Shown here piece after piece: positions 27 through 3,380 of a DNA stretch of 64,000 nucleotides; within the stretch, counting starts at the first letter, position 1; each line of letters opens with the position of its first letter. Location of the stretch: contig BPHJ01000001.1 in assembly GCA_026003475.1 (NCBI GenBank), forward strand, positions 1 through 64,000, read 5' to 3'. The position numbers and the translations under genes are program-made. Source of the stretch: Candidatus Kapaibacterium sp. (GTDB taxonomy: Bacteria; Bacteroidota; Ignavibacteria; Kapaibacteriales; NICIL-2). The notes beneath the pieces were generated by a model, which saw nothing but the letters and a program-made list of their open reading frames with translations, was not told the DNA's origin and searched no databases.

Positions 27-3000
27 GTTTCAATCCACGCGCCCGCGTGGGGCGCGACTTACGCGCTCAACGTCATCCGCGGTCGCTGGCTGGTTTCAAT
101 CCACGCGCCCGCGTGGGGCGCGACCTGCACCGTCTGCTGTAGCCCTTGGATGTCCTGCGTTTCAATCCACGCGCCCGCGTGGGGCGCGACTGGATTTAAT
201 CGAAGAAAAACAATCACTAGGAGGTGTTTCAATCCACGCGCCCGCGTGGGGCGCGACCGCGATCCGCAACGGTCACAATTCGGGCCGCCGGGTTTCAATC
301 CACGCGCCCGCGTGGGGCGCGACCATTATGTCCCACTTACTTGCGAGGTTGTTTAATGTTTCAATCCACGCGCCCGCGTGGGGCGCGACGTGCAATCGGT
401 CGCGCAGTCGCTTGCGCACATTCTGTTTCAATCCACGCGCCCGCGTGGGGCGCGACGTTTTCGATCGCGCAACGACCGACCTTGAGATCGTCGTTTCAAT
501 CCACGCGCCCGCGTGGGGCGCGACAACATGCTGTAGATCGGTATCGTCCAGAGCGTTTCAATCCACGCGCCCGCGAGGGGCGCGACGGCTCATCGCTCGC
601 GCACGATGACGCCGGTTTCAATCCACGCGCCCGCGAGGGGCGCGACGACTGCTGAGCATGACGCGTCGCAGTACTGGCAGTTTCAATCCACGCGCCCGCG
701 AGGGGCGCGACTGGCTGCTCGAGCCAGCGTCGTAGACTCATGCGTTTCAATCCACGCGCCCGCGAGGGGCGCGACCTGCGTGATAGCTGTCGTGAGCTAG
801 TGAGGTTTCAATCCACGCGCCCGCGAGGGGCGCGACGCGCTCAGATCTGCGCGTGCCGGTCGCAGCGTTTCAATCCACGCGCCCGCGAGGGGCGCGACCG
901 TTGTAGCGTGACCACGACGGTGTGAGTCCGCGGTTTCAATCCACGCGCCCGCGAGGGGCGCGACGTGCGTGCAGTCTTGAGCGTAGCCACGTGCCGTTTC
1001 AATCCACGCGCCCGCGAGGGGCGCGACGTGCTAGCGTGACCGATCTCGACGCTATGGCGTTTCAATCCACGCGCCCGCGAGGGGCGCGACCGCAGCTGGC
1101 ATCTGCGCGCTGCTAGTTCGCAGCGTTTCAATCCACGCGCCCGCGAGGGGCGCGACCTGGCTGTGCACTTGTCGGTGGTCCTGGTCGTTTCAATCCACGC
1201 GCCCGCGAGGGGCGCGACCGCAGCTCGAACGTTTGTACCGACTGGCAGTTTCAATCCACGCGCCCGCGAGGGGCGCGACGATTGACTTATCGGAGCGTTC
1301 GATGTCGCGTTTCAATCCACGCGCCCGCGAGGGGCGCGACTCGTCGAGTCTTGCGACGTGCTCGTACGGAGTTTCAATCCACGCGCCCGCGAGGGGCGCG
1401 ACTCCGCTGATGCGAGTCCGATTCTAGAGGAGTTTCAATCCACGCGCCCGCGAGGGGCGCGACGCTTGGAGTGTGCGCGCTGCCGATGTCGCGTTTCAAT
1501 CCACGCGCCCGCGAGGGGCGCGACCTGGTGCGCATCGTCTGGCATTCGCGTTTCAATCCACGCGCCCGCGAGGGGCGCGACCGCTAGCGGATGCATCGCC
1601 GACAGCGCGTTTCAATCCACGCGCCCGCGAGGGGCGCGACGCGTATGCGCGCATATCTCAGCCTCAGCGTTTCAATCCACGCGCCCGCGAGGGGCGCGAC
1701 CTGCGTGACGCTGATCGGTGACGCTCCTGGGTTTCAATCCACGCGCCCGCGAGGGGCGCGACCATGTGCGCGTCGATGCGACGTGCTCAGGTTTCAATCC
1801 ACGCGCCCGCGAGGGGCGCGACCACTGCTGATCGTGCACGCGCGCATCTGTACGGTTTCAATCCACGCGCCCGCGAGGGGCGCGACCTGCGTCAGGACTG
1901 CTACCGCATCACCGGTTTCAATCCACGCGCCCGCGAGGGGCGCGACGCTGCGCTGTGCATCGCGACTCGCTACGCGTTTCAATCCACGCGCCCGCGAGGG
2001 GCGCGACTCGTAGTCGCGACGTCTCGCATGCACGCGTTTCAATCCACGCGCCCGCGAGGGGCGCGACCGTGTCGGCACGCAGTCGATCGCGACGTCGTTT
2101 CAATCCACGCGCCCGCGAGGGGCGCGACGCTGTGCGCGATCGTCTGACCGCATCGACGCGTTTCAATCCACGCGCCCGCGAGGGGCGCGACCTGCTGCAG
2201 CTCGGACGATGCTACTGCGGTGTTTCAATCCACGCGCCCGCGAGGGGCGCGACCGTACTGGACTTCGTCGAGCCTCAGACGTTTCAATCCACGCGCCCGC
2301 GAGGGGCGCGACCGTGTACGCAGCTGGTATCCGTGCGAACGTTTCAATCCACGCGCCCGCGAGGGGCGCGACCGTGCATCGTGTACGTCATCGTTCAGCG
2401 TGTTTCAATCCACGCGCCCGCGAGGGGCGCGACTGCTGCATACGGCTGTCCGCGCACTGCGTTTCAATCCACGCGCCCGCGAGGGGCGCGACTGCTGATG
2501 CGCATCTCGCAGCTCGGTTTCAATCCACGCGCCCGCGAGGGGCGCGACCTGCATCGACTGCTTGCATAGCCTGCGTTTCAATCCACGCGCCCGCGAGGGG
2601 CGCGACGCTGATTGTCACGTCGCGTATCTGCTACGCGTTTCAATCCACGCGCCCGCGAGGGGCGCGACGCAGTCGTGCTGATGCGTTGCTCATCGGTGTT
2701 TCAATCCACGCGCCCGCGAGGGGCGCGACGTGCCGACGTGCCGATGCGTCGCGTGGTTTCAATCCACGCGCCCGCGAGGGGCGCGACGTGCGACGTACGA
2801 CTGTGCACGCTGCCGTTTCAATCCACGCGCCCGCGAGGGGCGCGACTCGCGTCGCTCGACTGTGCGCAGTCGAGCGTTTCAATCCACGCGCCCGCGAGGG
2901 GCGCGACCTGATCGGCAGTCGCGCTGCAACGTGCGTTTCAATCCACGCGCCCGCGAGGGGCGCGACGCTGCCGTAGGCCGTGCACGCAGGTTTCAATCCA

Positions 3001-3380
3001 CGCGCCCGCGAGGGGCGCGACTGCACGCATGCGCGTAGCGTACTGCGTTTCAATCCACGCGCCCGCGAGGGGCGCGACGATGTCGCATCGGCTATGCGCG
3101 TGCGTTTCAATCCACGCGCCCGCGAGGGGCGCGACGTCGCACTGATGCGCGACGTGCATCGCGCTGTTTCAATCCACGCGCCCGCGAGGGGCGCGACGCG
3201 TCTCGACGCATGCAGCGCTTCGCAGCCGTGCGTTTCAATCCACGCGCCCGCGAGGGGCGCGACGTCGACATCGTGCGATCTGCGCACTGCGTTTCAATCC
3301 ACGCGCCCGCGAGGGGCGCGACGTCGGCAGCTTGCCGTTCGCAGCTGCGTTTCAATCCACGCGCCCGCGAGGGGCGCGAC
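27..3380 (-). CRISPR. Type I-C CRISPR array, 55 repeats, 54 complete spacers
   Basis: There are fifty-five copies of a 32-bp repeat, the first at 27-58 and the last at 3349-3380. On the plus strand they begin GTTTCAATCC and end GGGGCGCGAC. On the minus strand the repeat ends ATTGAAAC, the usual 5' handle of I-C crRNAs, so the array is transcribed leftwards from the leader at its right end. Repeats 1-8 (27-524) carry CGTGGGG and repeats 9-55 carry CGAGGGG; no other differences were seen. The minus-strand repeat folds with a 7-bp stem (CGCGCCC/GGGCGCG), and the variable base lies in the loop. Spacers 1-7 are 34-36 bp (mean about 34.6); spacers 9-54 are 23-34 bp (mean about 28.7). The array runs off the left edge, where 1-26 is a partial spacer. 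The newest spacers should be those nearest 3380. Confidence 0.98.

What the first reader, a model, noticed from the sequence alone, without database searches (positions are those of the whole stretch)
525..3348. CRISPR spacers lose homopolymers and become shorter from about spacer 8-9 onward
I counted adjacent identical bases by hand. In spacers 1-8 they make up about 22% of neighbour pairs (57 of about 264), near the random value of 25%. In spacers 9-54 they make up about 7% (87 of about 1265), and only one run of three or more appears (TTT in the spacer before 1248). At the same point the mean length drops from about 34.6 to 28.7. A 35-bp random sequence with every homopolymer collapsed would be about 26 bp, so the newer spacers look nearly like homopolymer-compressed versions of normal ones, while the 55 repeats keep CCC, GGGG and TTT. 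Either this is a consensus artefact limited to spacers (repeats being corrected by their high copy number), or the acquired sequences are truly biased, which would be very unusual. The three extra-base frameshifts at 36060, 37360 and 44452 show that this assembly may carry homopolymer-length errors.
Basis: seen in the sequence. Interest (0 to 1): 0.7.

Follow-up and report, generated by a model that had tools for sequence, protein, structure and literature searches.

The report
Phantom CRISPR spacers from strain averaging
The odd short, run-free CRISPR spacers are most likely not real sequences: they look like the computed average of many different real spacers carried by different cells, so the genome record holds about 47 spacers that probably no cell carries.

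Summary
Spacers 9-54 have 87/1276 (6.8%) identical neighbours and mean length 28.7, against 57/264 (21.6%) and 34.0 for spacers 1-8; spacer 8 (525-554) already belongs with the odd set. Among 1,646 spacers from 100 other arrays with this repeat, only 0.12% are 30 nt or shorter and the run rate is 26%. The array belongs to an ordinary type I-C operon (cas2 to cas3, 3681-11488, minus strand). The odd spacers are therefore the leader-proximal, newest ones, the part of an array that differs most between cells of one population. Simple homopolymer loss fails: it predicts GC 0.578 and lag-2 identity 0.323, and 0.641 and 0.268 are observed. A likelihood-type (median-string) consensus of unrelated 34-mers reproduces short length, missing runs, raised GC, low A and low lag-2, and leaves every repeat intact. 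45 of 46 odd spacers are also unusually central subsequences, a mark of simulated consensus strings that compressed natural spacers barely show. Best explanation (about 0.88): consensus over a strain-diverse population averaged many different leader-end spacers into phantom ones; spacers 1-7 are shared, so they are real. No reads were available to prove it. It is a data artefact, though a useful warning sign.

The parts
1..524 (-). Trailer-end part of the CRISPR array: partial spacer at the contig start, spacers 1-7 (34-36 nt, normal composition) and eight repeats GTTTCAATCCACGCGCCCGCGTGGGGCGCGAC; read as genuine shared ancestral spacers
   Evidence: 54/235 same-neighbour pairs, lengths 34-36; contig begins at window base 1
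525..3348 (-). Spacers 8-54, leader-proximal: short, run-poor, A-poor consensus strings, probably phantom sequences; 46 A-variant repeats lie between them
555..3380 (-). 47 identical A-variant repeats GTTTCAATCCACGCGCCCGCGAGGGGCGCGAC
3381..3680 (-). Leader region between the array and cas2
   Evidence: position beside cas2 and the leader-most repeat; the same arrangement in relative G002, whose contig stops at the first repeat
3681..3971 (-). cas2
   Evidence: TIGR01573, 7.2e-16
3974..5005 (-). cas1, type I-C
   Evidence: TIGR03640 Cas1c 471 bits, cut-off 385; PF01867; the only Cas1 in the genome
5002..5655 (-). cas4
   Evidence: TIGR00372, PF01930
5711..6700 (-). cas7 (csd2), type I-C
   Evidence: TIGR02589
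6630..8615 (-). cas8c (csd1)
   Evidence: TIGR01863 552 bits
8375..9130 (-). cas5c
   Evidence: TIGR01876 217 bits
9161..11488 (-). cas3 (HD nuclease and helicase)
   Evidence: TIGR01596, TIGR01587

Best explanation
The array is an ordinary, active type I-C array whose leader end differs from cell to cell. Spacers are added at the leader (right) end, so cells of the sampled population share the old trailer spacers 1-7 but carry different spacers nearer the leader. The assembler and polisher lined up reads from these cells on the shared repeats and forced one consensus through each spacer slot. The string that best fits many unrelated 33-36-mers is a median string: it avoids runs (a run is a poor common subsequence), is shorter than its inputs and exaggerates the commonest bases. 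Repeats and ancestral spacers, identical in all reads, come through intact. Spacers 8-54 are therefore phantom sequences. Shown here: the statistics, the orientation, and that such a consensus reproduces the pattern and spares the repeats. Inferred: that this assembly was made from a diverse population with such a consensus method.
For: (1) Median-string consensus of 15-40 unrelated window 34-mers gives run rate 0.04-0.12, GC 0.62-0.68, A 0.17-0.19, lag-2 0.23-0.27, with length 29.4-30.8 under two of three error models; observed 0.068, 0.641, 0.138, 0.268 and 28.7. (2) Whole-array simulation with 8% read error and unrelated spacers per read keeps all 22 repeats exact and gives run rate 0.053-0.069, GC 0.63-0.64, lag-2 0.20-0.26, length 30.9-31.8; letting reads differ in unit number gives length sd 2.3-3.9 (observed 2.5). 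(3) Centrality: 45/46 odd spacers have a longer common subsequence with random 34-mers than their own composition- and run-matched shuffles (mean +0.25, p = 8.5e-14); simulated consensus +0.29 to +0.35, compressed natural spacers +0.03 to +0.06 (first seen, 46/46). (4) Orientation: cas2 lies beside the right end, so the odd spacers are leader-proximal, and length falls further towards the leader, where diversity should be greatest. (5) Leader ends are strain-specific and trailer ends shared in natural populations (PMC2946923; PMC5852275). (6) No comparable array among 100 with this repeat.
Against: No reads, coverage or sequencing platform were available. Partial-order heaviest-path consensus did not reproduce it (run rate 0.21-0.25, with mean length 37-40 for 20-40 distinct spacers), so the effect depends on the consensus algorithm, and the one used here is unknown. 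Simulated mean length (29.4-33) is a little above the observed 28.7 and simulated A (0.17-0.19) a little above 0.138; the composition of the true spacers is unknown. Natural spacers show a small positive centrality themselves (+0.10). The match of the break with the T-to-A repeat change needs an added assumption: that the change arose in the leader-proximal repeat before the population diversified.
Confidence: 0.88

Rival explanations
1. Homopolymer-length error: real single spacers whose runs were collapsed by noisy long reads, with the repeats rescued by their high copy number.
For: Low run rate and short length; a natural 34-mer compresses to about 26.6 nt.
Against: Compression leaves GC at 0.578 and A at 0.21; observed 0.641 and 0.138 (p = 4e-6 and 2e-11). 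Lag-2 identity should be 0.323; observed 0.268 (p = 1e-4). Compressed natural spacers lack the centrality signal. Unique single-copy sequence in the rest of the window keeps its runs, and trailer spacers 1-7, just as unique, keep theirs.
Confidence: 0.04
2. Same averaging, but over different units of one clonal array whose reads were aligned out of register, not over different cells.
For: Gives the same median-string statistics; 55 near-identical repeats make slippage possible.
Against: Slippage should be worst far from unique anchors. The leader end, next to the unique cas locus, is the most affected (length trend), while the trailer spacers at the contig end, with no flank, are normal.
Confidence: 0.05
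3. The spacers are real: a change in the adaptation machinery began to insert short, run-free sequences.
For: The switch is sharp, coincides with a repeat variant, and affects the newest spacers.
Against: Only 0.12% of 1,646 spacers with this repeat are 30 nt or shorter, and no array resembles this one. Length sd 2.5 against 1.2 does not look like a protein ruler. Cas1, Cas2 and Cas4 are ordinary intact family members; relative G002 has a 92%-identical Cas1. The centrality signal has no biological reason.
Confidence: 0.03

Closest known systems
Type I-C CRISPR-Cas system with a 32-nt GTTTCAATCCACGC...GCGCGAC repeat
   Same: Gene content and order cas3-cas5-cas8c-cas7-cas4-cas1-cas2, repeat, leader position, and spacers 1-7 of 34-36 nt
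   Different: Spacers 8-54 as assembled (23-34 nt, almost no runs) fit no other array with this repeat that I examined
Leader-end spacer hypervariability in natural populations (Leptospirillum, Sulfolobus islandicus, Microcystis)
   Same: Shared trailer spacers, cell-specific leader spacers
   Different: There the diversity was read from isolates, metagenome reconstruction or amplicons; here it would be seen only through its averaged consensus
Homopolymer-length errors of noisy long-read assemblies
   Same: A consensus artefact that removes runs
   Different: Here it is confined to spacers, changes base composition and second-neighbour statistics, and leaves the run rate of unique sequence elsewhere normal

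Membership tests
Type I-C CRISPR-Cas | Cas8c/Csd1, Cas7/Csd2, Cas5c and Cas1c of the I-C families in one operon with cas3, cas4 and cas2 | tested here: met
   NCBIfam type I-C models over their cut-offs for Cas8c, Cas7, Cas5c and Cas1c; cas2, cas4 and cas3 models also over theirs
Type I-C CRISPR-Cas | 32-nt repeat shared with other arrays | tested here: met
   The same repeat in 118 stretches of other genomes; these were not checked for their own cas type
Type I-C CRISPR-Cas | Spacers of about 33-36 nt with natural composition | tested here: not met
   Met for spacers 1-7 (34-36 nt), not for 8-54 (mean 28.8 nt); taken as a fault of the assembly, since the other features tested are met
Consensus artefact of unrelated spacers (median string) | Low run rate, short length, exaggerated major bases, low lag-2 identity, repeats intact | tested here: met
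   not reproduced by heaviest-path POA
Consensus artefact of unrelated spacers (median string) | Excess subsequence centrality over run-matched shuffles | tested here: met
   45/46, p = 8.5e-14
Consensus artefact of unrelated spacers (median string) | Reads disagree with each other in these slots | not testable with these tools
   No raw reads available
Homopolymer compression of single real spacers | Unchanged GC and lag-2 identity of compressed natural sequence | tested here: not met
   GC 0.641 against 0.578, lag-2 0.268 against 0.323

The most novel reading that the evidence does not exclude
The type I-C adaptation machinery of this lineage really took up about 47 short, run-free, GC-rich pieces after a change that also fixed a new repeat variant, which would mean a sequence-selective or processed source of spacers.
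Probability: 0.03. Interest if true: 0.9.

Novelty: not a real feature. Interest (0 to 1): 0.3.

Why it matters
If right, this genome record lists about 47 spacers that probably exist in no cell; using them for host-virus matching or spacer statistics would mislead. The signature (short, run-poor, lag-2-poor, subsequence-central spacers confined to the leader end) can be computed from sequence alone, so it could flag such arrays in long-read metagenome assemblies and, at the same time, show where a population's leader-end immunity is highly diverse. Six searches of a held open-access paper library, most of them aimed at CRISPR arrays in long-read or strain-diverse assemblies, brought up no paper whose title or abstract describes this artefact; that is a limited search.

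Tried and rejected
Partial-order-alignment consensus (heaviest bundle, three scoring schemes) gave longer strings with near-normal runs and does not explain the data. Homopolymer compression was rejected on GC and lag-2 statistics. General run loss in the assembly was rejected: the rest of the window has a run rate of 0.234 and, away from the array and the tandem-repeat gene, runs up to 8 nt. A frameshift scan against ORFs of same-genus relatives covering 56.5 kb of the window gave 15 candidate rows; I read most as shadow reading frames crossing gene boundaries without checking each, and took only 37.37-37.40 kb as a likely real one. Protospacers: all of spacers 1-7 and seven of the longer odd spacers had no match in the phage collection at E <= 1, which decides nothing. 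The contig end does not continue the array, so circular closure could not test the trailer end.

Full report
WHAT IS THERE. The window starts at base 1 of a 2.16-Mb single contig and begins inside a CRISPR array of 55 repeats of 32 nt. The array is followed on its right by a region of about 300 bp and, on the minus strand, cas2, cas1, cas4, cas7, cas8c, cas5c and cas3 (3681-11488), with NCBIfam type I-C models over their cut-offs for Cas1c, Cas7, Cas8c and Cas5c. In this arrangement transcription runs right to left and the leader is at the right end, so spacer 54 is the newest and the spacers at the contig start are the oldest (inference from cas and leader position, established knowledge of I-C loci).

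THE OBSERVATION. Spacer 8 (30 nt, 3/29) belongs with the odd set, so the normal ones are spacers 1-7 (54/235, 34-36 nt). The switch falls at the point where the repeat changes from GCGTGGGG to GCGAGGGG. A falls to 13.8% and GC rises to 64.1%, and length declines further towards the leader (Spearman -0.51, p = 3e-4); the run rate and A content also fall towards the leader, but not significantly (p = 0.17 and 0.11).

NATURAL BASELINE. The repeat occurs in at least 118 stretches of other genomes. From these and same-genus loci I took 1,646 spacers in 100 arrays: length 34.2 +/- 1.2, 0.12% at or below 30 nt, run rate 0.262, lag-2 identity 0.332; arrays with 8 or more spacers range from 0.19 to 0.33 in run rate. 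No bootstrap set of 46 among 100,000 fell below 0.212 in run rate or 33.5 in length. The odd spacers lie far outside natural variation.

WHY NOT RUN LOSS. Collapsing runs in window 34-mers gives length 26.6, GC 0.578, A 0.21 and lag-2 identity 0.323. The odd spacers have GC 0.641, A 0.138 and lag-2 0.268 (p = 4e-6, 2e-11 and 1e-4). The rest of the window keeps its runs, and the one frameshift resolved (37360) is a lengthened G run inside a tandem-repeat gene.

WHY AVERAGING. I simulated the string that maximises total alignment likelihood to N unrelated natural 34-mers between fixed repeat ends. As N grows from 3 to 40 the run rate falls from about 0.17-0.19 to 0.04, GC rises to about 0.65-0.68 and lag-2 falls from 0.27-0.31 to 0.24-0.27; length falls to 29.4-30.1 under unit-edit and insertion-rich models and to 33.0 under the ONT-like one. 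A whole-array simulation with noisy reads, realigned and polished twice, keeps 22 of 22 repeats exact while the spacers take on these statistics, and variable unit number between reads widens the length spread to sd 2.3-3.9. An independent property also fits: a median string is an unusually good common subsequence. 45 of 46 odd spacers exceed their own composition- and run-matched shuffles in mean common-subsequence length with random 34-mers (+0.25, p = 8.5e-14); simulated consensus strings show +0.29 to +0.35, natural spacers +0.10, compressed natural spacers +0.03 to +0.06. The seven normal trailer spacers give +0.22, but with n = 7 this is not significant (p = 0.11). Heaviest-path partial-order consensus does not reproduce the pattern, so the claim is for likelihood-type polishing.

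WHY THE LEADER END. In natural populations trailer spacers are shared and leader spacers are strain-specific (PMC2946923; PMC5852275). That is the layout here: intact trailer block, damaged leader block, shortest nearest the leader. Slippage within one array would instead hurt the stretch farthest from unique flanks. Same-genus relative G002 (92% identical Cas1) ends its 3,920-bp contig at the first leader-side repeat, and G001:C66 ends within two units of it, as fragmented assemblies do at such loci; this is compatible with leader diversity but also with simple repeat collapse. The repeat switch at the same place is explained if the T-to-A change arose in the leader-proximal repeat, the template for new repeats (established knowledge), before the population diversified.

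LIMITS. The reads, the platform and the polisher are unknown. Simulated lengths and A content come close to, but do not exactly match, the observed ones. The conclusion is therefore strong on 'not single natural spacers and not compressed spacers', and inferential on the exact pipeline.

Noticed in passing
window 35531-43538: Large tandem-repeat gene with units of 345-346 and 408-411 bp, broken into several ORFs. The third (44452) lies just downstream, in the ORF 44423-47824, which had no Pfam match.
   Followed up: partly
window 3570-3670: Between cas2 and the array there are degenerate repeat-like stretches (for example TCTACGCACCCACGTGAGGCAGGACC), with similar ones in the same place in relative G002 (L013 1200-1310): perhaps decayed repeats or conserved leader elements. 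Judged by eye.
   Followed up: no
L170 2421-3610: The array of relative G005 has one spacer (CTGACAATGATTCCCAATCAGCACAAATGCGCACAC, one copy with a one-base change) about eight times, mostly between degenerate repeats (GGGGCACAAC): local duplication of repeat-spacer units.
   Followed up: no
L009 18330-19500: Close to the end of the contig the sequence looks degraded, as if reading frames were broken. Judged by eye only.
   Followed up: no
L132: Relative G003 probably corresponds to 'Chlorobiota bacterium isolate SKW43' (a 61,267-bp contig carrying the repeat in both listings), which suggests that the window comes from a Chlorobiota genome.
   Followed up: partly
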